Shown: in pieces, positions 17,930 to 52,318 of the stretch
Layout: each line of letters opens with the position of its first letter
How positions within the stretch are numbered: position 1 is the first letter of the stretch
Origin: Marinobacter similis
Lineage (GTDB): Bacteria > Pseudomonadota > Gammaproteobacteria > Pseudomonadales > Oleiphilaceae
Reading direction: 5' to 3'
Assembly: GCF_000830985.1 (NCBI RefSeq)
Contig: NZ_CP007151.1
Span: forward strand, 558,001 to 622,000
Length of the DNA: 64,000 bases
Made by a program: the position numbers and the translations under genes
The notes under the pieces: model-generated
Told to the model about the DNA's origin: nothing
The model's input: the letters and a program-made list of their open reading frames with translations, nothing else
The model's database searches: none

Positions 17930-17966
17930 TGGATCTCTGTTGTTTGTGCATCAGTGAGCAATGGCT

Positions 17967-19908: not shown

Positions 19909-19935
19909 TAAAGGTATGGACGGCACGGCCGTTAC
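19909..19935 (+). promoter_or_regulatory. Sigma-28 (FliA)-type promoter upstream of flgMN
   Basis: TAAA at 19909-19912, exactly 15 bases, then GCCGTTAC at 19928-19935; the FliA consensus is TAAA-N15-GCCGATAA, so 4 of 4 and 6 of 8 positions match. It lies about 60 bases before flgM, whose product is the anti-sigma-28 factor, which fits the known feedback loop. Confidence 0.65.
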
Positions 19936-19996
19936 ATAGATACACACTCGAGTAAGTCGCGCCACCGCGCGGCACTACAGGCAAGCAGGTATAGAT

Positions 19997-20323: not shown

Positions 20324-20330
20324 GTAAATC

Positions 20331-22478: not shown

Positions 22479-22482
22479 TCCC

Positions 22483-25074: not shown

Positions 25075-27853
25075 TCCAGCGCTGAAAGCAGCTGGCCCTC
25101 CGGACTGAACACCAGCACTAACCAATCACTGCCAATCCGAGTCAGAGCCGCGATTTCATCATCGCGATAATTGGCGAGGGCGACAATCTCTGAGTCACCT
25201 TTAGGCAACTGGTAACGCCATTCGTTGTCGTGGGGCTTTTCCTCGCTATCAGATTCTGAATCTTCCTCAACCAGAGATACCCTGGCCAAAACACCCTGAT
25301 CTCCATCGACCACTGCGGTGTCCCCATCGAACCCTCCGTCCGTAGACCCACCGACCACCATATCGTCGTCAAACGCCAACAGCAGCGTAAGACGATCGTC
25401 CGACTGATCATCCCCATCGTTGAGGGTGAACGCCCGTCTGATCAGGCCGGTGGTGGTGTAAGCTAAAAGGAAGCCGGCCTGACTGTTTAGGGGCCCACGC
25501 TCCAGGCTGCGATTGCCGCCCTCGTCTTTCAGCAGCCGATAGCTGCCGGCCGTGGTGCCGAGCAGCCACATTTGATTACCTTCGTAGATGGCATCCGTGA
25601 GCGGATCATCGGCCTCCGAGCCAACCTGGAACACGGCTAGCCCGCGCTCGCCTGAGGTTGTGCTGTAATAGAAAGCATCCACCCCGCCCAATACCGGTTC
25701 GCCATTCACCGAACCGGCCACGGACCCGAAGAGCAGCGGCGCCACTGAGCGCGAGGCGGCGCCGACCACAGACTCGTTGGCCGACGAGCCGACCTGGCGA
25801 GTCCACGCAACCTTGGGAACTTCGTTGGCTCCATCCTGCTGCGTATCGATGCGTTGCAGGAAGCTGTCCGTACCGCCGGCGTTAGTTTGATTGGGCCAGG
25901 TGCCCACTGTTTCCCCAGCGATCAGTACGTAGCCACTATCGGAATTCATTTGCACTGACCGTACCTGGTCGTCGGCACTGGTGCCGGTTCGAATGGTCCA
26001 GTTCGCAACATACTCACCACCGTTGGACTCCTCATCAAACCAATACCTGGACGTCACGATATCCACTCCACCCTGGGCGGCGGTGCCCGAAACGGCCGAA
26101 TCAGTGCTGTAGGAGACGACAAATTCGAAACGGTCGACCTTCCCTTTATCCTTGGCTACCTCTCGCTTGACGGTGGCAATCAACGGCTTTGGCTGTGACA
26201 GAGTGTCACTGGGGCTGGAAATCAGAATATCCTGCAGTTCACTGCCTTTCTGATCGTAAACCCTGACCCTCACTCGATCGCTGCTGAGGCTGTCATATCC
26301 GGCGACGAAGATCCGCCCTTGGTGAGAAACATCGAGGTCGGTCGCGACAAAGCCGTCGGATTGATGCAATGCTAGGGCTTTAACCTGCTCGTTGAAGCTC
26401 ACTCTCAGGATACCTCCGTCAACCGCACGAGCGTAGTTTTCCCGGCCTGCCTGATACTTCTGATCAAGGCCGAGCAGGAGGAACCGGTCGTCCAGTTCCG
26501 AATTGGAATAGCTGCCCTCCGGAACCCGGATGCGGAACCTGACTTCGTTGACGCCAACAGGAAACTCCAGCTCATCGGAAGGCACCCACCGGCCATTACT
26601 CCAGCGCTCGGTGACTACACCAGCCCCCAGCTCTGCGTCGGACTCCTTGGTTTCCTGAAGTCTGGCCAGAATCACCTCGTCCCGGTCCCCCGTCAGCACA
26701 GCCAGGTACTCCCGTGCATCGCCAACGTTCAGGGCATCTCGCGCGTCCCCATCTTCGGTCTGAATGCTGACCAGAGGCTCATTGTCATCAATTTTCAGAG
26801 AGGTATCGGCTTCTTTGTTATTGGGGCCCAGGCCCGCCAGCCTGAGCGCACTTCGGTGAGCTTGAGCTTGGCAGTTTCCTGCTTCTCCGGGAAAGAATCG
26901 TCAATGACTTCCAGGCGGATATAGCACTCGGTAATGCCTGGCTCCAGCGTTACTACGCCACGGCTGTAGGTGCCGGACTCGTCCTGCTGATATACCAGGT
27001 AGTCCAGCTCTTCCAGACGGGTTTGACTGTTGCTACCCAACGCGACTATGTCATGACCGACGGTGGCATCGGCCTCGTTGGCCTTGCTGTGATCACAACG
27101 CTGATGGGGCGGAAGGTAATCGGTATCAGGATCCTTGTCGCAGCTGGCCGGGTTGTACTCGGACGTGAGCTCAAAGGCCACCGCCACCCGAGTGACGGAC
27201 GGTTGATCGAGTAGAACTCGCACCAGAACCGGCTGAGTTTCGGCGGTGATGGTCTTGGTGCCTGAAACCGAACCATCCTCAGCGTACTGGTTTACGGTAA
27301 AACTGTGTTCGCCTGGAGTGTCCAGTTTTGGGACGTCACAAAACCCGTCGTTCTCTTCCGGCTCATCGTCAGTTTCTGTTCCAGTATCCGCACCACTATC
27401 GGAACTCTGCCCCTCCGTGAAAGTGTCGTTTTCAAGCGATAGAGCGTTGTATCTAACCTCGATATCAAACGGTTGCACACCCGACATGCTCCCGTCGGTG
27501 CTCACGAGGTTGATACCCAGCTGACGCCCCAGATCCGCTTCGCCCCGACTGCCCCCACTAAGCCCAGGGACGCCTCGCATGATGATGCCCTGACGAGCTT
27601 TATTGCTTGTTTCTTCGAGGGCAAGCCAGGATGGCGCGTTGGTAAGGGTGTAATCGAGGATGTCCTCGCCGCCATAGGCGCCGAAGTTGTAGTAGTACTC
27701 TACGCCGAGATAGGCTTCTGCCGGCGGCACTCCAATAATGGTGGGGTCGTCGGGGTCTTTTTCGGTCTTGCAGGCAATCAGGGCCGAAGCAAAAACGAGC
27801 GTCACGAGGAGGCGGCTGGCGGAACCAGTGCGGGAGACTATATCGGCGCGCAT
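25071..27853 (-). CDS. Large FilF-like surface lipoprotein with Ig, Calx-beta and SBBP-like parts (one frameshift)
   Basis: About 927 residues after repair. A lipoprotein signal peptide is seen (LLVTLVFASALIACKTE, Cys at about 28). Then follow a putative-Ig region (about 40-130; PPAEAYLGVEYYYNFGAYGG), a Thr/Asp-rich linker, a Calx-beta-like segment (about 285-345; LEPGITECYIRLEVIDDSFP, KLKLTEV), and a long C-terminal beta-propeller-like part with SBBP-type phrases (VAWTRQVGSSANESVVGAAS, VLGGVDAFYYS). The frame breaks near 26840; one added C gives SGLAGLGPNNKEADTSLKID and joins the parts. The layout resembles FilF of pilus-related loci, and the MshEN/FilA-motif gene lies 3.4 kb away. Its ligand or partner is unknown. 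Confidence 0.65.
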
Positions 27854-28045
27854 GGAAAAATCCGTTTTAACGTTGTTGTTATCGGGTGCCCTGGCTCTCG
27901 ATTGAAAGCCACTTACACTCCGTTACAGAACAACGCCATGGTAGCCAATTTGAAGTACAGGGGAGCTGCGCGAGTTCTCAGATTTTTCCGCCAGCCAGCG
28001 TCCAAAAACCAGAAATTCGAGGGGTTTTAAAGGAACAAAATTAAC

Positions 28046-31000
28046 TTACGCTTTTGCTGAGTAGTCATTCACAATACCTATCATACCTGACGCTACTGCC
28101 TGACTATCCGTTAGCCTTCGATAACTCACCTCGTTATCGAGTACCATCCGCCGGATATTTGAAGGCTTGGCCAAACGCTCATCCATGATCTCTTGTGACA
28201 CCGGTCTACTGAACAAATATCCCTGCACTTCATCGCAATGGAGATCCTGCAAGAAGCGCAGCTGCTCTTCCGTTTCCACGCCTTCTGCCACCACCCGAAT
28301 ATCTAGACTATGACTCATGGCAATAATTGCGCTAACGATCGCCGCATCACTTGAATCCTGAAGAAAGTCCGCAATAAACGAGCGATCTATTTTTATCACG
28401 CTGATTGGAAACCGTTTGAGGTAACTTAGTGATGAGTATCCAATTCCGAAATCATCCAATGAAATCCTCATACCGGCGGAGCTGAGTTTTTCCAGAACGG
28501 ACTCCGCAGCATCCATGCTCTGCATAACCGCTGTTTCCGTAATTTCTATTTCAAGCGCTCGGGCCGGTATGCCAAATTCATCCACGATCGCGATAATCTG
28601 CTCGGCAAGATCCGAAACTCTGAACTCATATGGAGATATATTCACTGCGACAGGAAGGGTGCCGTAGCCCGCTTTCTGCCAAAAGCTGATTTGCCGGCAT
28701 ACAGAGCGGATTACCCAGCGATCCAGCATCTCAATCAACCCAGCCTGCTCGGCGAGAGGAACGAACTCGCTCGGCTGCACCAGTCCTAATAAAGGATGCT
28801 GCCACCGCACTAGCGCTTCCATGCTCTTGATCTCGCCAGTTCTCAAGTCGATCTTAGGCTGGTAGTAGACGGTTAACTCGTCATGCTCTAACGCACGATG
28901 TAACTCAGCTTCTAACTGGATCTGTTTCTTGGCACGCTGATTGATCTCTTCCGCATAGAATCGAAAGTTGTTATCCCCGTGGGTTCTTCTACCTTCCCGC
29001 ATCGCGCCACTTGCGTTTCTGAGCAATAATTCAGCACCTTCACCATCCTGAGGGAACAGGCTAATACCAACATTTATGTTCAAATAGATTTCATTACTTT
29101 CAACGGTAATCGACTTTTTAAATTCCAGGAAAATACGCTTCAATATACTTGTAACTATTTCAGGCCGTTCCAGATCGGTCAGCACCAGCGCAATTTCATT
29201 ACCACCCAGACGGGATACTGTGAAAAATAGTCCCTCCTGCGAACAAATAGCGACAGTGTCAGTAGACCTTAGGGTCTGTTTTAAGCGCGTAAGAATCTTG
29301 TTGGCTAATTTCTCTGTTATCGCAAAACCCAATGTGTCCTTTACACGCTGTAAGGTATCAACATTCATTAGCAGTACAGCAATTTGGGTTTCATCCCGCC
29401 GTGCCCTTTTCATACCTTGCTCAATACGATCCAGAAGTAAGGCGCTACTCGAATGATCACCGGCGCCAGTGCCATTTAAGGATGCTTCTCCCAAGCTCTC
29501 GTTTGCCGAAAACTCCGATAAAGCCTCCTTACCAAGAGCCGGAAGCGCGGTAGGCACGGTACTCTGCCCTCCTGATGGTTCATCATGGTTTAGCGTGCCC
29601 TTGTGCGGCGCCGGCGTCGCCAAGCTGGCGCTCTCTTCGTTCTCGGCCCCGTTCCAACAAATCACACGGTTTCGCCCGCTTTCCTTTGCTACATACAGCG
29701 CTTTATCGGCTTTTGACAGTAGGTCAGGAGCACTTGAAGCGCCCTTCGACAACGCGGAAACCCCAAAACTTGAGGTGATATGCAACTCACAATGGATCTC
29801 AGAGGTATCCCATCCTTCAACGGTTGAACGCATTCGCTCTGCAATTTGAGCAGCCGCATTGATATCCGTATCTGGAAGAACGACCACAAATTCCTCACCT
29901 CCCAGCCTTCCGACCAGATCACCGGAACGCGAACATTCTGTCAGGATGTGAGTTAGCAATTTTATCGTCTCATCACCAATCGGATGTCCGTATCGGTCAT
30001 TGACCAACTTGAAGTGATCAATATCAACCATGATACAACTGAACTCACTGCCCTCCCGACGGGCCTCATCGAACAAGGCGTCCATATGATGAGTTAAAGA
30101 GCGCCGATTCAATGCGCCGGTCAATGGGTCACGAGCAGCTAGCCACTGGAGTTCCTGATTCTGCCGTGATATTTCGCCCTGACTATGCTCCAACTCCATT
30201 AATGCACGATTCAGAGCCTCATTCTTCGCTTCTATTTCCGTAATATCATCAAAGGTAATTAATACCCCTCGAATTTTCCCTTCGGTTGCCGTAATCGGCG
30301 AGGCATAGACCGTGAGGATAAAAACTTCATCAAGGTCATTTTTGAGTTTCATCGTCACACTGCCGGCTAACACCTCACCAGCCAGTACATTCACCCAAGG
30401 CCGCTCGAAGTTATCACCGCCCTCACCATGACTCTGCCAGCTGAAACTCGAAATAGCTTTGCCCAGCAAAGCATCGGGTTTCATTCGGATTTTTTCTGAA
30501 AATGCCGAATTCGCAAAAACAATAAAGCCTTTTTGATCCACGATCAGAAGCCCCTCAGACAGTGTGTCCAGAGCCTTGCTTACCCGATCGGGTATGACCG
30601 CATCAGGGTTCAGTTCGCGCAATGCCCGCTTTAAAAACAGCAGGTAAACCAGAAACCCACCCAATGAAACAAATAAAATAATACCAAGGTACGAGTTTTT
30701 CAGAGGAAGCAGGCCGCTGCCGCCATCCAAATCAAAAAAAACAATTTCAACATTGCCCCAGCGAACTTCCCCCTTAAACAGAGGCACCAGAACCTGTGTG
30801 GCCGTAGATTTATCACCTGTTTTCAGGCTCCAGTGTTGCTCATGACCACCAAACTCGGCGAGCAACTCGTTATTGTTCTTACGAACAGCGATTGAATTGA
30901 CGATTTCATTCCGATCAACCACCGATTGCAGTATCTGCTCAATAGTTTTTACTCGCCCATTGGAAATTTCGTTCGATATCTGAATGGCTAACGATTCAGC

Positions 31001-31141
31001 GACCATTTTCCTGGATTCAATCTGGGCATGGCGTGTATCAGGAATCAGACCAAGCACATCTGCGACAAGGAGTAACGAAACGGTAAGCAGTGTCAGGCTG
31101 AAGCTGATTCGGATCAAAGGTGATTTAAGGAATCGTCTCAT
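28046..31141 (-). CDS. PAS-GGDEF-GGDEF-EAL c-di-GMP enzyme, membrane bound
   Basis: 1031 residues. Membrane segment 1 (about 10-32), a periplasmic region, membrane segment 2 (about 150-170), a PAS domain (about 190-305), then GGDEF domain 1 (about 335-495) with GGEEF at 414-418 and an inhibitory I-site RSGD at 405-408, so it should make c-di-GMP. A low-complexity linker leads to GGDEF domain 2 (about 565-730), whose motif is GGNEI (646-650), so it is degenerate. The EAL domain (about 745-990) keeps EAL 775-777, ITE, DDFGIGYSSL, KIDRSF and VVAEGVE, so it should hydrolyse c-di-GMP. It starts 6 bases after the giant surface-protein gene and closes the operon, suggesting that it controls that system. 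Confidence 0.9.
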   Translation of the reverse strand: MRRFLKSPLIRISFSLTLLTVSLLLVADVLGLIPDTRHAQIESRKMVAESLAIQISNEISNGRVKTIEQILQSVVDRNEIVNSIAVRKNNNELLAEFGGHEQHWSLKTGDKSTATQVLVPLFKGEVRWGNVEIVFFDLDGGSGLLPLKNSYLGIILFVSLGGFLVYLLFLKRALRELNPDAVIPDRVSKALDTLSEGLLIVDQKGFIVFANSAFSEKIRMKPDALLGKAISSFSWQSHGEGGDNFERPWVNVLAGEVLAGSVTMKLKNDLDEVFILTVYASPITATEGKIRGVLITFDDITEIEAKNEALNRALMELEHSQGEISRQNQELQWLAARDPLTGALNRRSLTHHMDALFDEARREGSEFSCIMVDIDHFKLVNDRYGHPIGDETIKLLTHILTECSRSGDLVGRLGGEEFVVVLPDTDINAAAQIAERMRSTVEGWDTSEIHCELHITSSFGVSALSKGASSAPDLLSKADKALYVAKESGRNRVICWNGAENEESASLATPAPHKGTLNHDEPSGGQSTVPTALPALGKEALSEFSANESLGEASLNGTGAGDHSSSALLLDRIEQGMKRARRDETQIAVLLMNVDTLQRVKDTLGFAITEKLANKILTRLKQTLRSTDTVAICSQEGLFFTVSRLGGNEIALVLTDLERPEIVTSILKRIFLEFKKSITVESNEIYLNINVGISLFPQDGEGAELLLRNASGAMREGRRTHGDNNFRFYAEEINQRAKKQIQLEAELHRALEHDELTVYYQPKIDLRTGEIKSMEALVRWQHPLLGLVQPSEFVPLAEQAGLIEMLDRWVIRSVCRQISFWQKAGYGTLPVAVNISPYEFRVSDLAEQIIAIVDEFGIPARALEIEITETAVMQSMDAAESVLEKLSSAGMRISLDDFGIGYSSLSYLKRFPISVIKIDRSFIADFLQDSSDAAIVSAIIAMSHSLDIRVVAEGVETEEQLRFLQDLHCDEVQGYLFSRPVSQEIMDERLAKPSNIRRMVLDNEVSYRRLTDSQAVASGMIGIVNDYSAKA

Positions 31142-31147
31142 AAATAA

Positions 31148-34100
31148 TTATCCGCCCTGACGGCTGGAATCCTCTCTTGAAAAGATCTGTTCGACCTCGT
31201 TCTCTGCTTCGCTCTCCGCATGCTGAGCATCTTTTTCCTGATCCTCTTCTCCAAGCACAGGAATTGGGTCAATCTGCCGCCACAATGGCGCGATAGACAT
31301 AAACCCGGCAATCAACGATCCCGCCCGAAGCACCCAACTGATAACACCCACTGAAAGCCCTGCCGTTGCGCCCAGCAGAACCTCCGCTCTCATCTTCTCC
31401 TGATTGGCTGTTGCTGCAGCAGCTTCATCAAGATCTCGCTTCATGTCATCGAGCCCATCAGAAAAAGACGCGTTGTCCATTAGCCAGGCCAGATCACCAA
31501 TCTCATTGCTATCAGGTTCGAAAGGCGCCAGATCCAGGCTCAGCAGGTCAATAAATTTTGGTGGGACAGGGTTATAGCTTTTAGCCTCGTACTGGTAGCT
31601 ATCGCGTGCCGCAGGCTCAGTTGCCAACACCTGGGCCAGAATTTCGTCATTAATCGGTGCCAATTGTTCAGCACCAGTTGTTACGGCTTCTTCCGTTTGC
31701 TCAATCTCTGGCTCACGGGCAAAGTTAGGTTCTGCCTCTGACGCTATTTCGAGGTCTGCTTCTGGCTCCGGTTCAGACTCAGCTTCTGGTTCCAGTTCAT
31801 ATTCTGATACAGGTTGTGGGCTGAGCGGCGTTAATGGCTCTCTTGCAACCACTCCAGTACCAGAGGTCATCAGCTCATTCCCACCGTCCTGGTCTTTGTA
31901 GCTTGCCTCGACAGTAATGACCCTACCCACCTCTGACTCAGTGAGCGTATAAGTCGTGCCTTTTCCCACCTCTATTCCGTCGGCCTTCCAGGTGTAGGTA
32001 ACAGGCCCCATACCATCTGCATCAGCCAGTGAGTTGGCGGCCGTCAGGGTTTCACCCAGCATTGCGATGCCAGAAATGGTCACCGCGCCGGTCGGCAGAT
32101 CGTTAACGGCGTTGACCGTAATATTCACGGTTCCGGTCTCCGTCACTCCGCCCGAGGTGATGGTGTAGGTGAAGGAATCGTTGCCGTTGAAGTTTGCATC
32201 CGGCGTGTAGGTGAAGGTGCCGTCAGACTGATAGCTGACGGTTCCGTTACTGCCGTTGGTCACAGCGGTTAGAGTTGGCGTACCCTCGAAGTTGTCGGCG
32301 CTGGCGCCGTTGGTGCCGGTCAACACGTTGGCCGTGATCGGCGTATCCTCATCCGTGATCAGAGTGTCATTAACTATATCGACCACCGGGGTCACGATGA
32401 CGCTGATTACCTGGGTGTCGGTGTAGCCATCATCGTCAGTGACCGTGACGGTAAACGAGTCACTGCCGCTGAAGTCAGCTGTTGGTGTATAGCTCCACAG
32501 ACCAGTGGCCGGATCGATGCTGGCCGTGCCGTTGGTCCCATCGGTTGAGACCGTAAAATAGGTGCCATCAGTCAGGCCGTCGGCATTGTCGCTGGCCGTC
32601 AACGTTCCGCTGATGGTGGTGTCCTCATTGCCCGCGCCAGTGGTGTTGCCATTGATGGTGACCGGATCATCGACGGAATTGACGGTGATGGAGACTGTCT
32701 GAGTCGAGCTCTCACCGCTACCACTGTCGGTAACGGTGTAGGTGAAGCTGTCAGGGCCATGATAGTGAGCGGTGGGCGTGTAGCTGAAACTGCCATTGGT
32801 ATTGAGGGTCAGACTGCCGTTACTGACATCGGTCGCCAGCGCGTAGCTCAACGCCCCGCCACTGGTGGTGCTGTCATTGGCAGCAACCGTATCAGTGAGA
32901 ACGGCGTCCTCGTCGAGCGTGAAGCTGTCGTCCTGGGCCGTCAGATCAGTCACGGCAGTGACCGTGATGTTGATCACCTGGGTTTCGACATTGCATCATC
33001 ATCGGTGGCCTGCACCACAAAGCTGTCGGCACCGCTGTAGTTCGCACTCGGGGTGTACGTCCAGTTGCCATTGCCATCGATGGCAGCAATGCCGTTACCT
33101 GCACCACTGGTAAGAGCGAAATTATTGACGGTGTATCCATCAATAGCATCGGAAAAGGTCACCGTGCCGGACGTGGCGGTATCTTCATTGGTGGTCGCCG
33201 AAACATCGCCCCCGAAGGTGCCGGCATCGTCGACCTGGTTAACGGTCAGACTAACCGTCTGCGTCGAGCTCTCACCGCTACCACTGTCGGTTACGGTGTA
33301 GGTAAAGCTGTCACCGCCTTGATAGTTGGCCGTCGGGGTGTACGTGAAGCTGCCGTTGGTATTGAGGGTCAGGCTGCCGTTACTGACACCGGTATTGACC
33401 GCATAGCTCAGCGCTCCACCACTGGTGGTGCTGTCGTTGCTGGCGACCGTACCGGTGAGCGTGGCGTCTTCGTTGAGCGTGAAACTGTCGTCCTGGGCCG
33501 TCAGATCAGTCACGGCGTTGACCGTGATGTTGATCACCTGGGTTTCGACATTGCCATCATCATCGGTGGCCTGCACCACAAAGCTGTCGGCACCGCTGTA
33601 ATTCGCACTCGGAGTGTACGTCCAGTTGCCATTGCTATCGATGGCCGCAGTGCCGTTACTTGCACCACTGGTTAGAACAAAATTATTGGCGGTGTATCCA
33701 TCAATAGCATCGGCAAAGGTCACCGTGCCGGACGTGGCAGTATCTTCATTGGTGGTCGCCGAGACATCGCCCCCGAAGGTACCGGCATCGTCGACCTGGT
33801 TGACGGTGATGGCAACGGTCTGGGTCGAGCTCTCGCCACTGCCGGCATCTGTGACTGTGTAGGTAAAGCTGTCACCGCCGTGATAGTTGGCCGTGGGGGT
33901 GTACGTGAAGCTGCCATCAGCATTGAAACTGAGGCTGCCGTTGCTGACACCGGTATTGACCGCGTAGCTCAGCGCACCACCACTGGTGGTGCTGTCGTTG
34001 CTCGCAACTGTACCGGTGAGCGTGGCGTCTTCATTGAGCGTGAAACTGTCGTCCTGGGCCGTCAGATCGGTAACGGCATTGACCGTGATGTTGATCACCT

Positions 34101-37100
34101 GGGTTTCGACATTGCCATCATCATCGGTGGCCTGCACTACAAAGCTGTCGGCACCGCTGTAGTTCGCACTCGGGGTATACGTCCAGTTGCCGTTGCTATC
34201 GATGGCCGTAGTGCCATTACTTGCACCACTGGTGAGAGCGAAATTATTGACGGTGTATCCATCAATAGCATCGGCAAAGGTCACCGTGCCGGACGTGGCG
34301 GTTTCTTCATTGGTGGTCGCCGAGACATCGCCCCCGAAGGTGCCGGCATCGTCGACCTGGTTGACGGTGATGGCAACGGTCTGGGTCGAGCTCTCACCGC
34401 TGCCGCTGTCGGTCACGGTGTAGGTAAAGCTGTCACCGCCGTGATAGTGGGCTGTCGGGGTGTACGTGAAGCTACCATCAGCATTGAAACTGAGGCTGCC
34501 GTTACTGACATCGGTCGCCAGCGCGTAGCTCAGCGCCCCGCCACTGGTGGTGCTGTCGTTGCTCGCAACCGTGCCGGTGAACGTGGCGTCTTCGTTGAGT
34601 GTGAAGCTGTCGTCCTGAGCCGTGAGATCGAGCACGGCGTTGACCGTGATGTTGATCACCTGGGTTTCGACATTGCCATCGTCATCGGTGGCCTGCACCA
34701 CAAAGCTGTCGGCACCGGTGTAATTCGCACTCGGGGTGTACGTCCAGTTGCCATTGCCATCGATGGCAGCCGTGCCGTTACCTGCACCACTGGTTAGAGC
34801 AAAATTATTGGCGGTGTAGCCATCAATAGCATCGGCAAAGGTCACCGTGCCGGACGTGGCGGTATCTTCACTGGTGGTCGCCGAGACATCGCCCCCGAAG
34901 GTGCCGGCATCGTCGACCTGGTTGACGGTGATGGCAACGGTCTGGGTCGAGCTCTCACCGCTGCCGCTGTCGGTCACGGTGTAGGTGAAGCTGTCACTGC
35001 CGTGATAGTGGGCCGTGGGGGTGTACGTGAAGCTGCCATCAGCATTGAAACTGAGGCTGCCGTTACTGACATCGGTTGCCAATGCGTAGCTCAGCAACCC
35101 GCCACTGGTGGTGCTGTCGTTGCTCGCAACCGTGCCGGTGAACGTGGCGTCTTCGTCGAGCGTGAAGCTGTCGTCCTGGGCCGTCAGATTAGTCACGGCA
35201 TTAACCGTCACCGTCACAGTCCCGGTCTCGGTCACCCCACCCGAGGTGATGGTGTAGGTGAACGAGTCGCTGCCAGTGAAGTTTGCATTCGGCGTGTAGG
35301 TGACGGTGCCGTCACCCCGGAAGCTGACGGTTCCGTTACTGCCGTTGGTCACAGCAGTCAGGGTCGGCGTACCTTCGAAGTTGTCGGCGCTGGCGCCGTT
35401 GGTGCCAGTCAAAACGTTGGCCGAGATCGCGGTATCTTCATTCGTGGTGAGACTGTCACCGACAATATCGATCACCGACGTTACAGTGATACTGCTGCTG
35501 GCTGGGTCAGCGCTGAACGGACTACTGCCGCCCACACCGGTGGTCAGGTCGGCGGTGACACCAGAGGTGCCGCGGGTCTGATCCCAGGCATGGAAGCTGA
35601 TGCCGTTGGTGACCGTGCCGTTCCAATCCGCGTCCGGTACGAAACGCACTGAGGTGTCGGCATCGGCGGCCAACAGGCGCGCGTTGGCCGTATCCACTGT
35701 GCCAAATGCCGTCCAGGTGGTGCCGCCGTCAGTGGTGTATTGCCAGGTGCCGTTGGTGTCGTCGACACCGGTCACCGCGATGCCTTCCACCGAGCCACTG
35801 TCACTATCGGTTACCTGACCACTGATCAGAGCCGAGACCAATGTGCCATCATTATTGGCCGGATCCTCGTTGATAACGGCAAGGTCATTTGCCCCGGTGA
35901 GCACCGGCGCATCGTTAACATTGGTCACGTTGAAGTTAAAGGCGCCGACGGCGGGCGTCGCTCCGTCTTCACCTCCATCGGCCAGTGAGAAATCAAACGA
36001 GTCCGTTGTCGCCTGCGTCCCATTGTGGACAAAAATCAGACGGTTGTTGTCGATGTCATCCTGGGTAAACGAAGTGATCGCCACGCCGGAATTGGTCGTC
36101 AGTTCCAGTTGGCCGTTGGTGGGTCCATTGGTCACCGTATAAGTAAGCCCGGTTCCGGCATCGTCCGGATCACCTTCGTTCAGCATTGTCGAGGTGATCG
36201 TTACCTGACCACCCTCGGCCACGGTCGTTCCATTGTTCGTGGCCAACGTCGGGGAATCGTTGACCGCAGTGATAGCAATATCACGAGTCTGCGCATGGCT
36301 GTTAGCATTGCCATCGTTTACGGTAAAGCTCACCGTACGAGTTGTTGTGTTCGGATTCTCGCTACTATTGCTGTAGGTGATCGAGCGGAGCGCCGTTTCA
36401 TATTGCCCCAGCGTGGCATTACCGGTCAGCGTCAAGATTCCCGTGGTCGCGTCAAAGGAACCGGTAATGCCGTTTTGGTCTCTGAAACTCAGGACGTCTT
36501 CGCTACCGGTGTATCCTGCAGTAAATTGCACGACGGCCGATTGAATGTGCGTATTATCCACATCGCTGATAGCCAACGTAGAAGTGATCGGTACCGCGCC
36601 ATCATTTTCGGTATATGACAGTGCCGTTTTCTCTATTGCGGCTCCGACAGGTGCCTCATTTTTGTCTTGCACTACCTGGATAGTGAAAATTTCGTTGTAA
36701 GTCAGCCCGCCTGCATCAGTGACCTCGATGGTAATATTATGTGATGTTACTGTCTGATAATCGATCAGCGAGGCATTCAGAACCGTGATGTTGCCGTTCA
36801 CCGAATCGATGTCGAAACGCCCACCTGCGCTATCAAGAAGTGTGTAAGTAAAGCTGTCACCACTGTCAGGATCAATGGTCGATAGCGTACCGACCACGGT
36901 TCCATTGGCAGTAGTTTCCGACACGGATAGGACCAGTTCTGGGTAGCTTGGCGAGAATCCGGTGCCGCTGGCGTGCTGCACGGTCAGGTTGTTACCGCTG
37001 ACGCTTTCGACGATCCTGCCACTGCTGGAAAGGTTGTCGAATATCCAGTTAGCTAACATGCCGGCTTCGTTACTGGGCAGCGTCTGATTGTAGTGCGTCG

Positions 37101-39773
37101 CAACTTCGGTGGCTGTACGTACACCATCGAAGAGCCGGATATCATAAAGCTCTCCGTTAAAGTATTCATGGGACTCGAAAGTGCCGCCGATGCTGTCCTG
37201 CTCAAGGCCAAACATCAGCGTTCCACCAGTCGGGATCGTTTGGCCTGTCGATAAACCTGTACCACTATCTATCAACGCGCCATCTATGTAGATGCTCCAG
37301 TCTCCAGCGGTATTATCCCAACTCACAGACAGGGTGTGCCTCTGACCGTCCATCAGGGTCGCGTTGTAATCGATCGCGCTGGAAAACGCGACAGCGCCTG
37401 TTCCGATATCGAGCTCAAGCGTGTTGTTTGCCATCGTGTTGATGGTGAGCACGTCGCCTGATGAGGTGTTGTACGAGATGAAAGGCACTTCGTTAGAGAA
37501 GGTATTTCCTTCGAACTGCACTTCAAACGTGAACTGGCTAAGTGGGCTTGGCAGTCCGTTGTCTGCTAAAAGATAAGTATCGTTACCGCCGTCTTCATTG
37601 AGACTGATGCCACTCTGTGAAATCGATGTGGTTATAAGGTCGATTGGGGTGTCGTTGACGGCCGTGATGTTGATCAGAACGCTGTTACTGCCTTCCTCGG
37701 TAGCAGCGGTGCCCGATGTACCGGGATCGTTCCCGGAATTACCGCCATCGTTTACCGTGACAGTGAGCGTTGTGCTGCCCGACGGATTATCCAAGCCGTT
37801 CAGATAGGTGATGGTGCCGGTACCGGCGCCGGTCAGCAGGTTATTGACTTGGGCGATACTGCCGCTAAGGGTGACTGTACCGGTGCTGTTGCCGCTGTTG
37901 ATGGTAACGCCTGAATCCCCGGCGGCCACCGTCAGAACTCCCTCAATTACAGTCAGGGTAGCCGTGGCCCCGCGCCCGCCTCGTCAACATCACTGACACT
38001 GAAGCCGGTGCCTTCAATGCTCAGACTGGTCTGCTCTGTGGCGGCAAGGGAGCTGCCCGGGGCTGTGACCACGGGCGCATCGTTATAGGCGTTGACGGTA
38101 ACGCTGCTGCTAGCCGGGTCGGCGCTGTAGGCCGTGCTTCCACCCACACCGGCAGAACCGTATTCGATCTGGATATCATCCAGGTAAAGCGTACGGTTAG
38201 ATGCCGCTCCGTCGTTGACATACAGGCGTATCTGCGTGTCGGTGGCGATGTAGCTGCTAATGTCAAACGAGCCGGTTCCGATCCCGCTATTGACGGAGGA
38301 AAAGGTATGCAGAGTGGTGAAACTGATTCCCCCATCGCCGGAAACCTGCAGCAATACCTCGCCCTTGGCCATCGAGCTGGAATCATACGCATAGGTCAAC
38401 GTGGCGGATGTCGCTGAGCTGATATCGACCTCGCGATAGATATTGTCTCCGATAACCGCGGCATTGACTATTAACTGTCCGCCCCTGACTTGCAGGTTAC
38501 CCTTGTCTGCTCCCAGACCTCCCGCCTCGTTTTCGACCCAGGCGCCGGACCAAGTTGCCGAGCCATCGTCATTTCCCCAACCGACCAAGGTGAATTCATC
38601 GCGCACCGTGGCAGAAGCACTCAGGTCGGCGGTGCCACCAGCCGTGCCGTTCGTCTGGTCCCAGGCATGAAAACTTATTCCATTGGTAACAGTGCCATTC
38701 CAGTTCGCATCCGGCATAAAACGTACCGAGGTATTGGCATCTGCTGCCAAAAGTCTGGCATTCGAGGAGTCTACTGCCCCGAAAGCAAACCAATTGGTGC
38801 CACCGTCCGTCGTATATTGCCAGGTGCCGTTGGTATCGCCGACTGCCGTTACCGCAATGCCTTCCAACGAGCCGCTGTCGGTATCGGTCACTTGGCCCGC
38901 GATCAAGGCAGAGACCAACGTGCCGTCGTTACTGACCGGATCCTCATTGATCGACGTCAGGTCATTAGCGCCAGCCAGTACCGGCGAAGCATTGGCGAGA
39001 ATGTTATGCCACTGACCCTGCTGCCTCTCGCTTATGGCTACAATAGTTTCGATGTCACCAGTTTCATATTCCAGATCCCAGTCTCCACCTATGCTTTCGT
39101 GTCCGGTGAGGTCATCGGAAGCTGCCACATCGGCCAGGGTCAGGGCGGCGAGGCCATCGATAAGCGATCGCCCCACCTCGGTTTCTGCCAGGTCACAACC
39201 ATAAAAAAGAATATCTGCGTCGGGATCCAGGTATTCGGCCCAGGATTGCAGCTGATTTTGATATAAAAAAAGATTCTCGTTATTGAGCTGCGTGTTGCCG
39301 AGATCAACGTTGCCATCTGAGCCGTGAGAAATAAGGTGGATTGCGTCTACAGCCTGATAGTTTTGCAAGGCGGCGGTGATCTGCTCGATGCCATCGCGGT
39401 TATTATCGAGCAGAATTACTTCCAAGCTGCGGTTGTCGTTGCCTTCCGATAAGATGTCATCGACGAGTTGCTGGTAGTTGGGAGTATCGGTATCAACAAA
39501 GACCAGCTCCGTACGAATAGCGCTTTCAGCCACAGGCGAAGTTGATTCGCCTTCCTGGGTGGGTGGTTCCGAGGGTGCGATGTGACTCTGTTCGCTCTCT
39601 AGCTGAGCACGATGCTTTTCGAGCACTGCGGCGGTGTCATCAAGCAGCGTCGCCAGAGAATCGTCCGTAGCAGGGTTGTCAGCGGCCCCGCCAAACAAAT
39701 CCGCCGAAAACAGCACCCGGGGCTCAAGAGCCTCGATGGTTGGCGCTACGCGTCGTTTCTGTTTTTTATCCAT
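31148..39773 (-). CDS. Giant LEPR-XLL/DUF4347/VCBS-cadherin surface protein (two frameshifts)
   Basis: About 2875 residues after repair. The N-terminus has the LEPR-XLL motif (IEALEPRVLFSADLF, about 13-27) instead of a Sec signal, then DUF4347 (about 85-245) with HLISHGSDG and ILFYGCDLAE. A LamG-like domain (about 725-900), cadherin-like domains (about 930-1100) and then many VCBS/Ig-like repeats follow, including the 561-bp array (about 1530-2280). Near the C-terminus are a Glu/Pro-rich acidic stretch, a hydrophobic segment (about 2795-2830; ATAGLSVGVISWVLRAGSL) and a short polar tail. No RTX nonapeptides were seen. Breaks near 37969 (joins DEAGAG to ATATLTVIEG) and 32993 (joins TDDD to GNVETQVINIT) are single missing bases. 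It is likely a surface adhesin or matrix protein exported by the operon upstream. Confidence 0.8.
32941..35183. repeat. 561-bp tandem repeat, four units
   Basis: The phrase for DLTAQDDSFTL recurs at 32941, 33501, 34062, 34623 and 35184, a spacing of 561 bases (187 codons) each time; the first interval is 560 because of the missing base near 32993. Each unit codes for two beta domains: one with DDSFTLNEDATLTGTVASND, one with AGTFGGDVSATTNEDTATSG. The units differ by scattered substitutions, and half units extend the pattern on both sides. A second repeat pair of about 290 bases, with ANVLTGTNGASADNFEGTPT, flanks the array at about 32110-32400 and 35195-35485. Assembly length errors are possible here. 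Confidence 0.9.
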
Positions 39774-39818
39774 CAGGCGCCTAACTCCATTTAAGACCCC
39801 TTCTCGTCAAGACTGAAC

Positions 39819-41231
39819 TTAACGATTGGCCAATTCAGGGTAACAAGCCATCGGTTTGAAAGCGGCCGGCGACACAAGGGATGCGGTGATGCTCTCTAAC
39901 TGGTCGAAAAGATCAGGTTCACCAGTTAGAGCTACATCGAGCCAATATTGATCAACGTCTTTGGTATGGGGCAGGATTTCCGTTTCGAAGCCCTTCAGCG
40001 CAAGCCCTTCCTGGCGTTGATCTGCGAACGCACGCGTGCGGAAATAACCGAGAGCCAAACGGCCCTTATTCTCGCCTTGCGCTAGAACGAATCGATCGTT
40101 AATACCCGCTTTATCAAGAAGGGAAAGTAAGCGCTTGGTCCCCTGAGAATTGGGCTGTTCAAGTGCAAGAACCCTATAACCCGCAATTACATTGTTACTG
40201 GCTGAGCGTAACCGGAGTTTTTCAGTGGTTTGTTCAAGCCTCTCAGCAAGCACTTGAGCCGTACTTTCATCCTTAACAGGGCCAACGCTGTAACAGACCT
40301 CTGTCGGATACTCGTTAGTCACCTCGACTGGCAAGGTGGGCTCTGTCGCATCAACAATCTGTGCAGGTTCATGCAAAGATTGTGGTAGGAAACTTAACTG
40401 ACACCGTAAACCAGCAGGAATCGCGTAATCGGGATTGGGCAAGCTTAAACGAACACCATAGGTACCACTGGCAGCATCAGCGACACGATCGACTCGTTCA
40501 ACCGTTGCCCGGTATTCGCCAGCGACCCCCAAACCAGTAGTCACCTCCGCCTGCATACCCGGCAGGATACGACCCCAGTAGTCCACCGGCACGATAACCT
40601 CCACATGCAGGGGATCTAGTTGAGCAACACGGACCAGTGGATCATTTTCCACAAACTCACCCACCGACTTAAAGCGCTCCATAATCACGCCCGAAACCGG
40701 GCTACGAATACTACGCTGTCCCAGAATCATTTGTGCTCGGTGGTATTCAAGCTCTGAAATGGCCTTCTTATCTTGCTCGTGCCTAACCTGCAATTCTGCA
40801 ATGCGCGCTTCCGTTTCCGATTGGTCCACATCGTGCTGGGAGATGGCGGACTTGCGTAACAGTTCCTGTTTACGCTTTTGAGTAAGTGAGCCAAACCGCG
40901 CGCCCTCCTGGCGTAACTCTATTGCCGTATCCATACCGGCGCGAATCCTGGCCAGCTCTAAAGAGGCTCGCTCCACACTGGATTCAAGCTCGACGATGAC
41001 TGTGCCTTTCTTCACGCGATCACTGCGATAGACGTGAATGGCTTCCACAACTCCCGGGATTGCGCTTCCCACATCAACAATCTCACTGGGCTGCATGACA
41101 CAATCTTGAACGGGAATGGCGTCATCAACCGATTCCCTCGGACTTTCGTTTGCATGAGCACTGACAACAGAATTAGTTATCAGAGCGAGCAGGAGCGACT
41201 TCCGTGTTTTTCCTTTCATTGGTTGACTCAC
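39819..41231 (-). CDS. Periplasmic adaptor (HlyD/RND-MFP type) with SPOR-like C-terminus
   Basis: 470 residues. A signal peptide (LLLALITNSVVSAHA) is followed by a lipoyl-like half motif (GSAIPGVVEAIHVYRSDRVK, KGTVIVELESSVERA), a long alpha-hairpin (about 90-175), the returning lipoyl half (RSIRSPVSGVIMERFKSVGE) and a beta-barrel domain (VEVIVPVDYWGRILPGMQAE). About 305-450 looks like a SPOR-type domain (CYSVGPVKDESTAQVLAERL, LALGYFRTRAFADQRQEGL), which often binds denuded peptidoglycan. It lies between the M50 gene (21 bases upstream) and the giant gene (45 bases downstream). GTG 41231 is preferred; ATG 41219 is possible. Most probably a part of the export or anchoring device for the giant protein. 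Confidence 0.72.
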   Translation of the reverse strand: MSQPMKGKTRKSLLLALITNSVVSAHANESPRESVDDAIPVQDCVMQPSEIVDVGSAIPGVVEAIHVYRSDRVKKGTVIVELESSVERASLELARIRAGMDTAIELRQEGARFGSLTQKRKQELLRKSAISQHDVDQSETEARIAELQVRHEQDKKAISELEYHRAQMILGQRSIRSPVSGVIMERFKSVGEFVENDPLVRVAQLDPLHVEVIVPVDYWGRILPGMQAEVTTGLGVAGEYRATVERVDRVADAASGTYGVRLSLPNPDYAIPAGLRCQLSFLPQSLHEPAQIVDATEPTLPVEVTNEYPTEVCYSVGPVKDESTAQVLAERLEQTTEKLRLRSASNNVIAGYRVLALEQPNSQGTKRLLSLLDKAGINDRFVLAQGENKGRLALGYFRTRAFADQRQEGLALKGFETEILPHTKDVDQYWLDVALTGEPDLFDQLESITASLVSPAAFKPMACYPELANR

Positions 41232-41252
41232 TCGCTACATGTCCTTGGAAGG

Positions 41253-43414
41253 TCAGAAATCCAGCCTGCTCAACAGCAACTGGCGACCACTACGAAACCA
41301 TTGGCTGGCCAAAGGCTCAGCACCATGATCGAAGCGCACGTAAGCGCGCTCACCTACCCCAGTTACACCGAAATTCTCGGGTAACGCCAGATCGATCTGA
41401 AAGACTTCTTCGGCCGCGCTTGTTCCGCCGCTATCCGTCATCTTTACGGCAATTGCACCACCGCCAGCAGTACCCAGGGCTCGGCTCGGCAACACCCTGC
41501 TGCCAGCTGGAGTCTCCCTGATAACCTCGGCCGTCACCGTCTCAATCGGCCTTTCAGCAACACGGATTTGAACTTGGGAGATCTGTTGGCGCACCAATCC
41601 TATAGTTGATTGCGGCACTACCGCCCTCACAATCAGACGCTCCGGGCTGATTACATACCCGATCAACTCCCCCTTACGCAGATAACTTCCGGCAAACCTG
41701 CTTTCATCGGGCAGTACAAACACACCCGCCACTTTGCTACGCACGATCAGTGCGTCCCGCTGTGCTTTCAGCATTGCCAATTCCGCTTCGACCGAAAGCA
41801 ACTCTGAACGGATCAGCTCAGATTTCACACGTTGCCTCATACGCTCGGCGGCACCACGAATTTGCAACTCTCGGCGACGAGCATCCAGTTTCGAAATTTG
41901 GGCTTCCAGTGAAAAAGCGCTCATGCGAACCAGCGGTGTATTGGCCTCCACCGGTGTTCCGGACTTAACCAACAACTCCTCCACAAACCCTTCTGCACCG
42001 CTATACACCAGGGCCTGCTCATTTACCCAGACAACACCTTCTGCGTGACTGGTAAGCGATATCGGCATCAGCAACAAGATAGCGCTAAGACCACCGACTA
42101 CTAAGACGGAAACGGAAGTGGCCCGTGCACGCCGCCCAACCAACATCTGTCCTTCGATCAGAAAGCGGGCACCGCGATAGAGCGGCAGAAACAGCTGCGT
42201 CCCCATCGCCCAGGCCCCCAAGGCGATCCCAATGAATAGGTACTCTTCCGCCAAAAACAGAACGATGACGGCCAAGATAAACAGCCGATAGAAAAAAGCG
42301 GCCAACCCATACACAGCAAACCAGGCCGCCTCGCCTTCGGCCGTCACCGGGGAGCGAGCTGTCTCAATGCCAAAGAGATAACGCTGGATCAGATAAAGGT
42401 AGTAACGGCTTGAACGGACATAAAGATTGGGAATTTCTGCGAGGTCCTGAAGGACGTAATAGCCATCAAATCGCAACAGCGGGTTGGCATTGAACAGTAG
42501 GGTCGAAACCGTGCCGATTAACATGACGTTAAATGCCACATCGCGCACCAGGCCGGGCTCAACCGCCAGCCATACAATCAATGCCAGTGCAGCAAGTGAC
42601 AACTCGGCCAGCACACCTACCGCCCCTACCAACGCCCGTTTGTACTTGTCGCGTATCTCCCAGGCGGCAGATGCATCTACATACGGAACCGGAGCAAAGA
42701 CCAGGAGCGTGATCCCCATTTCATGCACTTCGCCTCCCCACATCTTCACCGCGAAGGCGTGAGCAAATTCATGCACTACTTTGATAACCACAAAAGTCAG
42801 CAGCATGAGAACAAGGTTGGCCGGCAGGAGGATATCCCGACTTATTGAGGAGCTGATTTCAGGAATATTTACCAGCCCTAGCAAACCAGCTAAACCCACT
42901 AGGAGGATCCAAACAACGATACCGGCTCGAGAAAAAACTGGGCGGATCCAAGGATGAATCGATTCAGAATAGCGTCTGGATCCAGCAACGGAATGCGTAT
43001 CGACAACGGATTCACGACGGCACGTTGCCTGCGAAGACGACGCTCATTCTGAAACCGGTTAAAGAACTCTTTTGCTTCCGTCGGCAGTTCACTTCGCAGC
43101 AGATCCATTGCGAACAGCTGAGTCAATATCAGAACGATTTCATCTTGAGTCAGCGAATCCTCACCCAGAATTTGTTCTACCTTGTGGTAGATTTCTTCAA
43201 CCGTGAGCTCGCCGTCGAGTCGACCAATAAACTCGTAAGCCGGCGCGCTGAAACGCATATGACGATTACTGGATTGATCACGCAAAAGGTACCAGCGCTC
43301 GCCACGGTATTGCTGGGAATGGGTTGTTACATGCTTACGGAGCTTGGGGCGCAGCTTGGCGAGCAAAGGCCAATGTGGGTTTAAGGATGCTGCGTTCACT
43401 TGTTGTTCTGCCAT
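41253..43414 (-). CDS. PqqD-like / M50 membrane metalloprotease / HlyD-arm fusion (one frameshift)
   Basis: About 720 residues. Residues 1-150 resemble PqqD, a winged-helix domain that binds leader peptides (YRGERWYLLRDQSSNRHMRF, YEFIGRLDGELTVEEIYHKV). A membrane M50 domain follows: zinc motif HEFAH at about 215-219 (VVHEFAHAFAVKMWGGEV) and NANPLLRFDGYYVLQDL with the third ligand Asp. After several helices comes an HlyD-like arm (about 450-715) with half-lipoyl motifs and a coiled coil. The frame breaks near 42952: NRFI should run on as PWIRPVFSRAGIVVWILLVG, repaired by one C. The start ATG overlaps the stop of the GAF-HlyD gene (ATGA). Related fusions accompany LEPR-XLL proteins in other genomes, from memory. 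A role in reading or cutting the giant protein is inferred. Confidence 0.75.
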
Positions 43415-45324
43415 CAGACCGCCCAGAGCCAGAGACGGACTCGATCAACGATTGAGTGCGTCCAGATCCAGAGCAAGCTGTGTTGCCCCATATCAACCTT
43501 GGCCACCCCCCGCATGCCCGGGCGCAGCATAGGCGCGGGCTGATCTAGCGACGCCTCCACCCGGAAAAAGTTTCGCGCTTCACTGGAGACAGCAACTGGC
43601 ACTACTTGATCAATGACAACATCGAAAGCGGTTTGTGGTAAGGCCGATATGATAAGACGTCCGGGCTTGCCCCTTTCCACGCCCGCCACATCCTGCTCTT
43701 CCACTTCCAGCACCACGCGATAACTTTCCAGCGGCGCAACTTCATAGAGTACCTGGCCGGTCTCAACCGGTGCCCCAACCGATTGGCTCAGATCACCACT
43801 AACCACAACGCCATCGAAAGGCGCACGCAGTTGAGTACGTTTTATCTTTTCTTCAACAAGCTGAATTTCGGCGTTTACCTGGTCCAGCTGGGCGCGCAAG
43901 ACGCTGAGGGTAACCCGTTCGCTGTCCGCCAACGCCTGCTGATACTCGGTTTGGAGTTTGTTGTATTCGCCCTGCCATTTTTGACGCTCAAGTTGCAAAT
44001 CTCGATCGTCTAGTAAGGCCATCAGCTGGCCGTTCTTGACCAAGTCGCCAGCACGCACCTCCGCGCGTTTCACATAGCCAGTTTGCGGTGCCACCAAGAC
44101 CTGACGAACAGCGCCTTCGATGCTGGCGGCCGAAGCCATCTCATAGGTCCCTTCCACCAACGACAAAACACTGAGCAATACCGACGCCGTGAGCATCACC
44201 AATTTTGACTTCATAAATGAAAGGCCAAAAACGCTAGCGGCTAATTCATGCAACGCCTCAATGCCTTTAGACCAAGAGGAACGATCCTCCTGCCGCTTCC
44301 ATTCAAGCGCTGGCCCCACCACAGCAGCCAGAGACTGACACAGCGCAACCGTAGCCTTGTCAAAAGGTTGATTAGCCTCTCGCTCCAGGGTGATAGCCCC
44401 GATAACCTTTGATCGACCTCGTAGCGGGATTGTGCAAACAGAAGCACTTTGCTTCTGATTGGCCAATTCAGCATGGGCGCGAGAGACAACAGAATCCTGA
44501 ATGGGAATAGCCGGTAGAACCACGGTTAAGTCTTGATCCACAGCCTCTTCCATGGCTGCTTCTATTCTTCGCACGAGTTGGGTACGTGGATCAAAACTGC
44601 TGACATGTGATAAAGCCTGAAGGCGAATAGGCAGGCCCTGACGAAAACCGATACTGACTCGTTCGCATCCGAACTGATTGGCTAGCTGATTGACTGTTTC
44701 AATCGCCGCTGCATGAGAGGAGGAATGGCGGAGAATAGCTGTCATTGCAGTCAGGGCAAAGGTGCCCGATTCTCGCTGTGCAATGGAACGCTGTTGCACC
44801 AGCGTTTCCATCCACAGGCCACCCCATTGAAGCAACTGCAATACAGCATGCTGTTGGGCCACAGAGCGAGGTGAGATCAGGACTGCAACGACCGCGACGG
44901 GCTTATTTCCAACCATCAATGGGCAGGCTATTAATTCACAAGCACGCTGTTTTTCAGGCCCGTAACGCTGTTGCGAGCGAACTACGCTGCGCTTGTCGGC
45001 CAGTGCTTGGGCGGCGGCATCTGCCAGGAGAGATTCACCCTCACCCTCCTCTGGCCAACAGGAAACAGAAGCACCGAGACGCTTGGGATTTTCCGGCAAA
45101 TAGAGTGCGCCGCGGATAATGCCGGTAACCATCCGGCACTGCCAAGCCAGCCATTTCCGGGCCAATTCAACCGAAACAGCGGAGGAGCTTAGATCCACGC
45201 CCCCGTGGTCGGAGGTATTCGCCTTCCCCCGGTTAAATGCACGTGCCTCTATAGGTCCGTGGACGTCCTGTTCTTGGGAGCTCTTATCTGCACGCCTAGA
45301 CGGTGTGAGTATGCTAATGGGCAT
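43414..45324 (-). CDS. GAF-domain membrane protein with HlyD-like periplasmic arm
   Basis: 636 residues from ATG 45324. About 50-180 and 195-345 look like GAF-type sensor domains (ELIACPLMVGNKPVAVVAVL; FGCERVSIGFRQGLPIRLQA; VCTIPLRGRSKVIGAITLER). One membrane helix at about 378-398 (SKLVMLTASVLLSVLSLVEG) is followed by an HlyD arm: lipoyl half (VLVAPQTGYVKRAEVRAGDL), coiled coil (DLQLERQKWQGEYNKLQTEY), second half (RTQLRAPFDGVVVSGDLSQS) and a barrel. The sensor part would be cytoplasmic and the arm periplasmic. It heads the operon; TTGAGA-N17-TAAACA at about 45370-45403 is a possible promoter. A frame extension to 45408 is rejected for lack of a good start. Confidence 0.78.
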   Translation of the reverse strand: MPISILTPSRRADKSSQEQDVHGPIEARAFNRGKANTSDHGGVDLSSSAVSVELARKWLAWQCRMVTGIIRGALYLPENPKRLGASVSCWPEEGEGESLLADAAAQALADKRSVVRSQQRYGPEKQRACELIACPLMVGNKPVAVVAVLISPRSVAQQHAVLQLLQWGGLWMETLVQQRSIAQRESGTFALTAMTAILRHSSSHAAAIETVNQLANQFGCERVSIGFRQGLPIRLQALSHVSSFDPRTQLVRRIEAAMEEAVDQDLTVVLPAIPIQDSVVSRAHAELANQKQSASVCTIPLRGRSKVIGAITLEREANQPFDKATVALCQSLAAVVGPALEWKRQEDRSSWSKGIEALHELAASVFGLSFMKSKLVMLTASVLLSVLSLVEGTYEMASAASIEGAVRQVLVAPQTGYVKRAEVRAGDLVKNGQLMALLDDRDLQLERQKWQGEYNKLQTEYQQALADSERVTLSVLRAQLDQVNAEIQLVEEKIKRTQLRAPFDGVVVSGDLSQSVGAPVETGQVLYEVAPLESYRVVLEVEEQDVAGVERGKPGRLIISALPQTAFDVVIDQVVPVAVSSEARNFFRVEASLDQPAPMLRPGMRGVAKVDMGQHSLLWIWTHSIVDRVRLWLWAV

Positions 45325-45491
45325 AAGTAATTCTTCCGCTGAATTACCTGCAATTATCACCCAAAACTTATATTTTTCCTGTTTATTTTGTGTCCAAGTG
45401 TATCTCAACCGTACACATGAATCTGCGGATCACGTCCCAAAACTAAAATTTGACTGCCCGCGGGGCCGAAATCCCCTCGGGGCGACCAATT

Positions 45492-47536
<2,045 letters not shown>

Positions 47537-52317: not shown

Positions 52318-52318
52318 A

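What the first reader, a model, noticed from the sequence alone, without database searches (positions are those of the whole stretch)
28046..45324. Five-gene operon for a giant LEPR-XLL protein with its own membrane machinery and c-di-GMP enzyme
Seen: five minus-strand genes with gaps of 45 bases or less: GAF-HlyD, PqqD-M50-HlyD, adaptor with SPOR-like end, giant LEPR-XLL/DUF4347/VCBS protein, PAS-GGDEF-GGDEF-EAL. No ABC ATPase, TolC-like factor or RTX signal is nearby. Established: HlyD adaptors join inner-membrane pumps to outer-membrane channels; PqqD-like domains bind leader peptides; M50 proteases cut within membranes; c-di-GMP controls giant adhesins of the LapA type. Inference: the three HlyD-armed proteins form an unusual envelope device that recognises, exports, trims or anchors the giant protein, with the last gene setting c-di-GMP. 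I know of no described system of this exact make-up.
Basis: partly seen in the sequence, partly recalled or inferred. Interest (0 to 1): 0.88.

Follow-up and report, generated by a model that had tools for sequence, protein, structure and literature searches.

The report
Dedicated export machine for giant proteins
A Marinobacter-like bacterium carries a 17.5-kilobase gene block, missing from the same spot in 19 relatives, that joins one giant repeat-rich protein to three adaptor genes, one of them a metalloprotease gene whose family occurs in 25 of the 29 sampled genomes that encode such giants, and the block likely builds a dedicated machine that would recognise, export and trim its giant.

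Summary
The genes are there, but as eight ORFs: frameshifts split the M50 gene once and the giant gene twice. smc, ligA, lpd and mnmC in the same window are split too, so sequencing error is likely. The block (28,004-45,505) is absent between ligA and the next gene in 19 of 19 genus relatives whose junction was fetched. Among 369 genomes of the class, 25 of 29 with LEPR-XLL carry this PqqD-M50-HlyD family, against 7 of 340 others; LssB-type ABC exporters show no such link. Where both lie on one contig they are within 20 kb (13 of 13 and 21 of 21 genomes). The core was described in 2015 (Kamneva et al.) as a SecA_DEAD/type-I-like locus of unknown role. I add the likely substrate, a leader-binding fold on the M50 protein, a caspase-like fold (DUF4347) in the giant, a conserved C-terminal membrane hairpin, and a clade, the window's, without the SecA-like motor. 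Best reading: a dedicated export-and-maturation machine for LEPR-XLL giants. The association is shown; recognition, transport and cleavage are inferred.

The parts
28004..45505 (.). whole block, absent at this place in relatives
   Evidence: blastn against closest relative G028: homology runs to 28003 and resumes at 45506, 50 bp between; ligA directly beside the downstream gene in 19 of 19 relatives fetched
43414..45324 (-). GAF-HlyD protein (ORF open from 45408; ATG at 45324): GAF, one predicted membrane segment at residues 403-421, periplasmic adaptor part
42899..43414 (-). first piece of the PqqD-M50-HlyD gene: PqqD/RRE-like part
   Evidence: daptide_HExxH 1-113; homologues are single proteins; fold of relative P0013 residues 16-105
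41253..42899 (-). second piece: M50 domain (HEFAH) and adaptor part
39819..41231 (-). HlyD adaptor with SPOR-like C-terminal part
   Evidence: RND_mfp over cut-off; SPOR in 8 of 13 family members at E <= 1
37953..39773 (-). giant protein, first piece: LEPR-XLL leader and DUF4347
39675..39740 (-). LEPR-XLL leader
38997..39506 (-). DUF4347, predicted caspase/CHAT-like cysteine peptidase fold; His150 codon 39324-39326, Cys193 codon 39195-39197
32974..37929 (-). giant protein, second piece: cadherin/tandem-95 repeats and a pentaxin-like domain
31148..32977 (-). giant protein, third piece: repeats and C-terminal region
31280..31372 (-). conserved C-terminal membrane hairpin, followed by a charged tail
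28046..31141 (-). membrane PAS-GGDEF-GGDEF-EAL enzyme: first GGDEF (GGEEF) and EAL motifs intact, second GGDEF degenerate

Best explanation
The block is a SecA-less variant of a described but unassigned gene module, and it likely works as a dedicated export-and-maturation machine for the giant LEPR-XLL protein encoded within it. Inferred steps: the PqqD-like (RRE) domain at the start of the M50 protein would bind the giant's N-terminal LEPR-XLL leader, which does not look like a classical Sec signal. The M50 membrane part and the three adaptor domains, with a TolC-type protein from elsewhere in the genome, would form the conduit. The housekeeping SecA, in place of the SecA-like motor found in most relatives, would power transport. 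The DUF4347 cysteine-peptidase domain and/or the M50 protease would remove the leader, perhaps after the conserved Arg of LEPR. The C-terminal hairpin would hold the giant in the inner membrane until release, with the neighbouring c-di-GMP enzyme tuning production or release. Shown: the genes, their motifs, the linkage and the co-occurrence. Predicted from models: the folds. Not shown: transport, leader binding, any cleavage, or a c-di-GMP effect.
Confidence: 0.6

Rival explanations
1. Maturation and anchoring only: the giant crosses the inner membrane by the ordinary Sec route, and the M50, GAF-HlyD and HlyD-SPOR proteins process it and fix it in the envelope, without forming an export conduit.
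For: The window's clade has no SecA-like motor and no TolC-type gene in the window. The adaptor ends in a SPOR-like domain, a type known to bind peptidoglycan (recalled). The giant has a C-terminal membrane hairpin.
Against: The LEPR N-termini are less hydrophobic than the yardstick N-termini at 10-residue windows. Most related loci add a SecA-like gene, and some a TolC-type gene, which fits a conduit better.
Confidence: 0.2
2. A LapA-like, c-di-GMP-gated adhesin: the giant is exported by an ordinary type I exporter elsewhere in the genome, and the enzyme of the block sets its retention or release.
For: Giant repeat protein beside a membrane GGDEF-EAL protein; the enzyme recurs in 7 of 80 loci.
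Against: No LssB-type ABC exporter in this genome at E <= 1e-150 (3 candidates scored); no association of LEPR with such exporters (p 0.12); LapD score 159 bits against a cut-off of 1020; enzyme motifs are intact rather than degenerate.
Confidence: 0.08
3. Neighbourhood without function: the core and the giants travel together on mobile stretches but work apart.
For: The block is missing from the same place in relatives; the M50 family is found on 13 plasmid records; 7 of 32 M50 genomes have no LEPR.
Against: The link holds across 19 family codes of the class sample and in 27 of 36 genomes of M50 loci, with giants on either side of the core, which mere hitch-hiking would not keep.
Confidence: 0.07
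4. A dead copy: the splits in the giant and M50 genes are real and the block is decaying in this strain.
For: Three splits within the block.
Against: ligA, smc, lpd and mnmC in the same window are split as well, which points to assembly errors; relatives are unbroken.
Confidence: 0.05

Closest known systems
Secondary SecA_DEAD / type-I-related locus (Kamneva, Poudel and Ward 2015, PMC4452313)
   Same: GAF-HlyD, Peptidase_M50-HlyD and HlyD genes; type-I-like parts without an ABC transporter; secretion suggested, M50 proposed as pore (sections 16-18)
   Different: The window's clade lacks the SecA-like gene. The paper names no substrate in the sections read, and a term search of its main text for LEPR, PqqD and giant found none.
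NCBIfam LEPR-8K / LEPR-XLL giant proteins
   Same: Window leader scores 29.7 bits, cut-off 17
   Different: Two papers of the library hold the name, once each; the passage in one (PMC10868602) mentions an ~8,000-aa Vibrio protein without an export route; the other was not opened.
Type I secretion (HlyB/HlyD/TolC)
   Same: MacA/MexA/HlyD-type adaptors; TolC-type gene beside the core in some relatives
   Different: No ABC ATPase in the core; N-terminal LEPR leader
LapA/LapD/LapG adhesin control (recalled)
   Same: Giant repeat protein beside a membrane GGDEF-EAL protein
   Different: Enzyme motifs intact, far below the LapD cut-off; membrane hairpin at the C-terminus
RiPP leader-binding RRE domains (TbiB1) and daptide M50 proteases
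   Same: N-terminal 90 residues of the M50 protein match the RRE fold; its first 413 residues match daptide_HExxH at 170 bits, cut-off 300
   Different: Fused to a periplasmic adaptor part; the partner is a giant protein, not a short peptide
DUF4347 of the T6SS effector Tce1 (9qpe, PMC13323088)
   Different: Here it is a domain near the start of a giant; self-processing is inferred

Membership tests
Secondary SecA_DEAD / type-I-related locus | GAF-HlyD gene | tested here: met
   directly upstream of M50 in 69 of 71 loci
Secondary SecA_DEAD / type-I-related locus | Peptidase_M50-HlyD gene | tested here: met
Secondary SecA_DEAD / type-I-related locus | HlyD gene | tested here: met
Secondary SecA_DEAD / type-I-related locus | secondary SecA_DEAD protein | tested here: not met
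   one SecA over the cut-off in the genome, 922 aa; the window-type group of 16 rows has 12 without and 4 undetermined
Type I secretion system | ABC exporter ATPase | tested here: not met
   none in 48 window ORFs; no LssB-type in the genome at E <= 1e-150
Type I secretion system | C-terminal RTX-type secretion signal | not tested
   Pfam reports no RTX repeats in the window's giant; the signal itself was not modelled
LEPR-XLL (NF012209) | N-terminal domain above cut-off | tested here: met
   29.7 bits against 17
PqqD/RRE leader-binding domain | RRE fold | tested here: met
PqqD/RRE leader-binding domain | binds a leader peptide | not testable with these tools
   needs a binding assay or a complex prediction
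M50 / site-2 protease | HExxH and second metal-site motif | tested here: met
   residues invariant in 72 of 72; HEFAH present in the window; activity untested
Clan CD (caspase/CHAT/CPD-like) cysteine peptidase | fold | tested here: met
   on a predicted model
Clan CD (caspase/CHAT/CPD-like) cysteine peptidase | His-Gly and Cys pair (motif recalled) | tested here: met
   His150, Gly151 and Cys193 invariant in 21 of 21
Clan CD (caspase/CHAT/CPD-like) cysteine peptidase | peptidase activity | not testable with these tools
   needs an assay
LapD receptor | NCBIfam equivalog score; degenerate GGDEF/EAL | tested here: not met
   159 bits against 1020; GGEEF, EAL and DDFG motifs intact

The most novel reading that the evidence does not exclude
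LEPR-XLL giants, with open frames of up to 15,161 residues, leave the cell by a secretion route of their own: the PqqD/RRE domain of a membrane M50-adaptor fusion reads an N-terminal leader as RiPP enzymes do, a SecA-type motor (a dedicated truncated one, or in this clade the housekeeping SecA) drives the chain through an M50/HlyD/TolC conduit without any ABC transporter, and a caspase-like domain in the cargo cuts itself free at the LEPR arginine.
Probability: 0.35. Interest if true: 0.93.

Novelty: new variant of a known kind. Interest (0 to 1): 0.74.

Why it matters
A locus described in 2015 as secretion-related, its role 'completely unknown' (PMC4452313, section 17), gains a likely substrate: proteins with open frames of thousands to 15,161 residues, for which I found no described export route in ten paper searches (listings only, apart from the papers named in the report). 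If right, it is an ABC-free export route that borrows a leader-binding domain known from peptide natural products, and it can be tested directly, since cultured strains and plasmids carry it. The SecA-less clade asks whether the housekeeping SecA can serve such a conduit.

Tried and rejected
Standard type I secretion: rejected for lack of an ABC gene and of association. LapD-like control: rejected on score and intact motifs. Decay as the cause of the split genes: judged less likely than sequencing error, because ligA, smc, lpd and mnmC are split as well and the gene after the block (25071-27853, two ORFs here) is one ORF of 896-981 aa in the 33 other genus genomes that have it; not proved. The first count of SecA-less rows in the tree (19) was too high: L018, L071 and L078 do carry a SecA-like ORF that the position rule missed, leaving 16. 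The two loci counted as lacking GAF-HlyD (L078, L084) have a GAF-HlyD ORF that fell outside the position rule. The row L123 (G366) of the enzyme alignment is a hybrid kinase sharing only the N-terminal part and is left out of the motif statements; L134 and L040 are identical rows there. G147 and G428 give the same hit coordinates; neither is in the adjacency counts. The 13 and 21 genomes come from two draws, and other overlap cannot be excluded. In one search M50 was counted at E <= 1e-100. One search scored the best 7,995 candidates and listed 120 of 5,358 hits; 21 went into A1. The tree used the quick method and the F4216 protein in place of the window's split one. Fold comparison of the M50 model barely tests its middle part (note). 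Repeats, promoters, RNA families, viral contigs and phage records were not searched.
Full report
1. The observation. Two of the five 'genes' are not open: the M50 gene is two ORFs and the giant three. Relatives are unbroken: M50 proteins mostly of 710-720 residues, and giant ORFs of at least 2,857 residues in G031 and 1,503 in Marinobacter F4216, both running off the stretch held. ligA, smc, lpd and mnmC in the same window are split too. The simplest account is an error-rich assembly. The nearest named proteins are from Marinobacter.

2. A block missing elsewhere. The gene after the block was sought in 41 genus genomes and found in 34, own included. 20 of those stretches were fetched, one of them the window's own; in the other 19 of 19, ligA lies directly beside that gene. 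In the closest, G028, homology to the window runs up to 28,003 and resumes at 45,506, with 50 bp between. G+C of the block is 53.7%, of the flanks 57.5-57.8%. In a draw of 58 relatives (36 of the genus besides the window's), LEPR was in 3 and the M50 family (E <= 1e-50) in 6; within the genus both were found in the window's genome and G031 only. In G031 the block's genes and the gene that follows the block here are on different contigs.

3. A conserved core. 80 loci fetched with the M50 family span Gamma-, Beta-, Alpha- and Deltaproteobacteria, Nitrospira, Myxococcota and one Omnitrophota record (record titles). GAF-HlyD lies directly upstream in 69 of 71 with room. In 56 of 71 with at least 1 kb downstream the locus holds a SecA-like ORF, mostly of 650-700 aa, with SecA_DEAD, preprotein-binding and P-loop domains in the two scanned. 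Its ATPase motifs are invariant in 16 of 16, but the match to SecA chains ends near residue 608 of 783 (3jv2), and the two tested are below every NCBIfam SecA cut-off. [quoted passage not shown] Next come HlyD and sometimes a TolC-type gene. At genome level, judged by ORF length and score, the short SecA-like protein was in 23 of 32 class genomes with M50 and in none of the 20 genomes without M50 that I included (16 others and 4 LEPR-only). On a quick tree the window's kind (F4216 as stand-in) falls in a 16-row group, support 100, with 12 rows lacking the SecA-like gene and 4 cut off before it; four further SecA-less loci (L038, L051, L053, L064) lie elsewhere (corrected).

4. The giant is the likely client. 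In one sample of 369 class genomes: both in 25, LEPR only 4 (G133, G269, G280, G375), M50 only 7, neither 333 (p 1.8e-28). Collapsed by hand to family codes, 19 families have both, 3 only LEPR, 5 only M50 (tables). As a control, LssB-type ABC exporters occur in 94 of 369, 11 of them LEPR genomes (p 0.12). In 36 genomes reached from M50 loci (37 asked, L045 not held), 27 have LEPR. Edge-to-edge distance, computed from ORF lengths, is under 20 kb in 13 of 13 and 21 of 21 genomes with both on one contig; a second LEPR gene in G164 lies 610 kb away. Giants lie upstream or downstream of the core. Partial 'RTX giants' upstream of GAF-HlyD in L050, L055, L069, L074 and L082 fit, by their coordinates, as the C-terminal ends of LEPR ORFs of 7,273-12,896 aa. 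Two complete plasmid records show the whole order, and their 'prepilin peptidase' genes match the SecA-like profile at 886 and 918 bits.

6. The c-di-GMP enzyme. In the aligned relatives other than the L123 row, the first GGDEF keeps GGEEF, the second is degenerate, and EAL and DDFG are kept. It occurs at over 600 bits in 7 of 80 loci, with pieces at contig ends in L042 and L064. In 3 of the 7 a LEPR/DUF4347 gene or hairpin is visible in the stretch, in 4 not; two of those four genomes were searched and have 3 and 6 LEPR genes (G459, G460). So it is a recurring, optional partner with the motifs of an active enzyme.

7. Prior work. The core with SecA was described by Kamneva and colleagues (PMC4452313; abstract and sections 14, 16, 17, 18 read, part 2 of the text seen). 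They propose secretion, with SecA as ATPase and M50 as pore, and call the broader role completely unknown. A term search of the main text for LEPR, PqqD and giant gave none (supplements could not be read here). PMC10868602 names LEPR-XLL in passing (passage); PMC8262886 names DUF4347 (passage). Paper searches; most subscription journals and preprints are not held.

8. Verdict. The association is strong and specific; the mechanism is inferred. I file it as a SecA-less variant of a described, unassigned module, with its substrate newly proposed.

Noticed in passing
window 45492-47524, 48820-52335, 60375-61816, 22444-24374: ligA, smc, lpd and mnmC are each split over two or three ORFs: the assembly is rich in frameshifts.
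   Followed up: partly
window 25071-27853: Gene downstream of the block, two ORFs here, one ORF of 896-981 aa in the other genus genomes that have it; no Pfam match.
   Followed up: partly
L162:14222-16138, L164:15056-17080: The SecA-like protein is annotated 'prepilin peptidase' in two plasmid records.
   Followed up: yes
L028, L045, L050, L061, L129, L130, L135, L137, L164: A SapC-family gene recurs in these loci, near the core or a giant; role here unknown.
   Followed up: no
G447:C6:254448, G448:C7:325859: LEPR-XLL open frames of 15,161 and 13,628 aa.
   Followed up: no
L064:10128-11453: One second adaptor seems to end in a LysM_OapA-like domain where others have SPOR (one member; which one was read from the alignment).
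   Followed up: no
L123:4257-7196 (G366): Beside a LEPR giant lies a hybrid kinase-like protein that shares the N-terminal part of the c-di-GMP enzyme.
   Followed up: no
window 17102-20801: Chemotaxis and flagellar genes (CheR, CheW-receiver, FlgA, FlgN).
   Followed up: no
window 53244-54218: A second, separate GGDEF protein.
   Followed up: no
plasmid records: The M50 family sits on 13 plasmid records, 5 of them predicted conjugative.
   Followed up: partly
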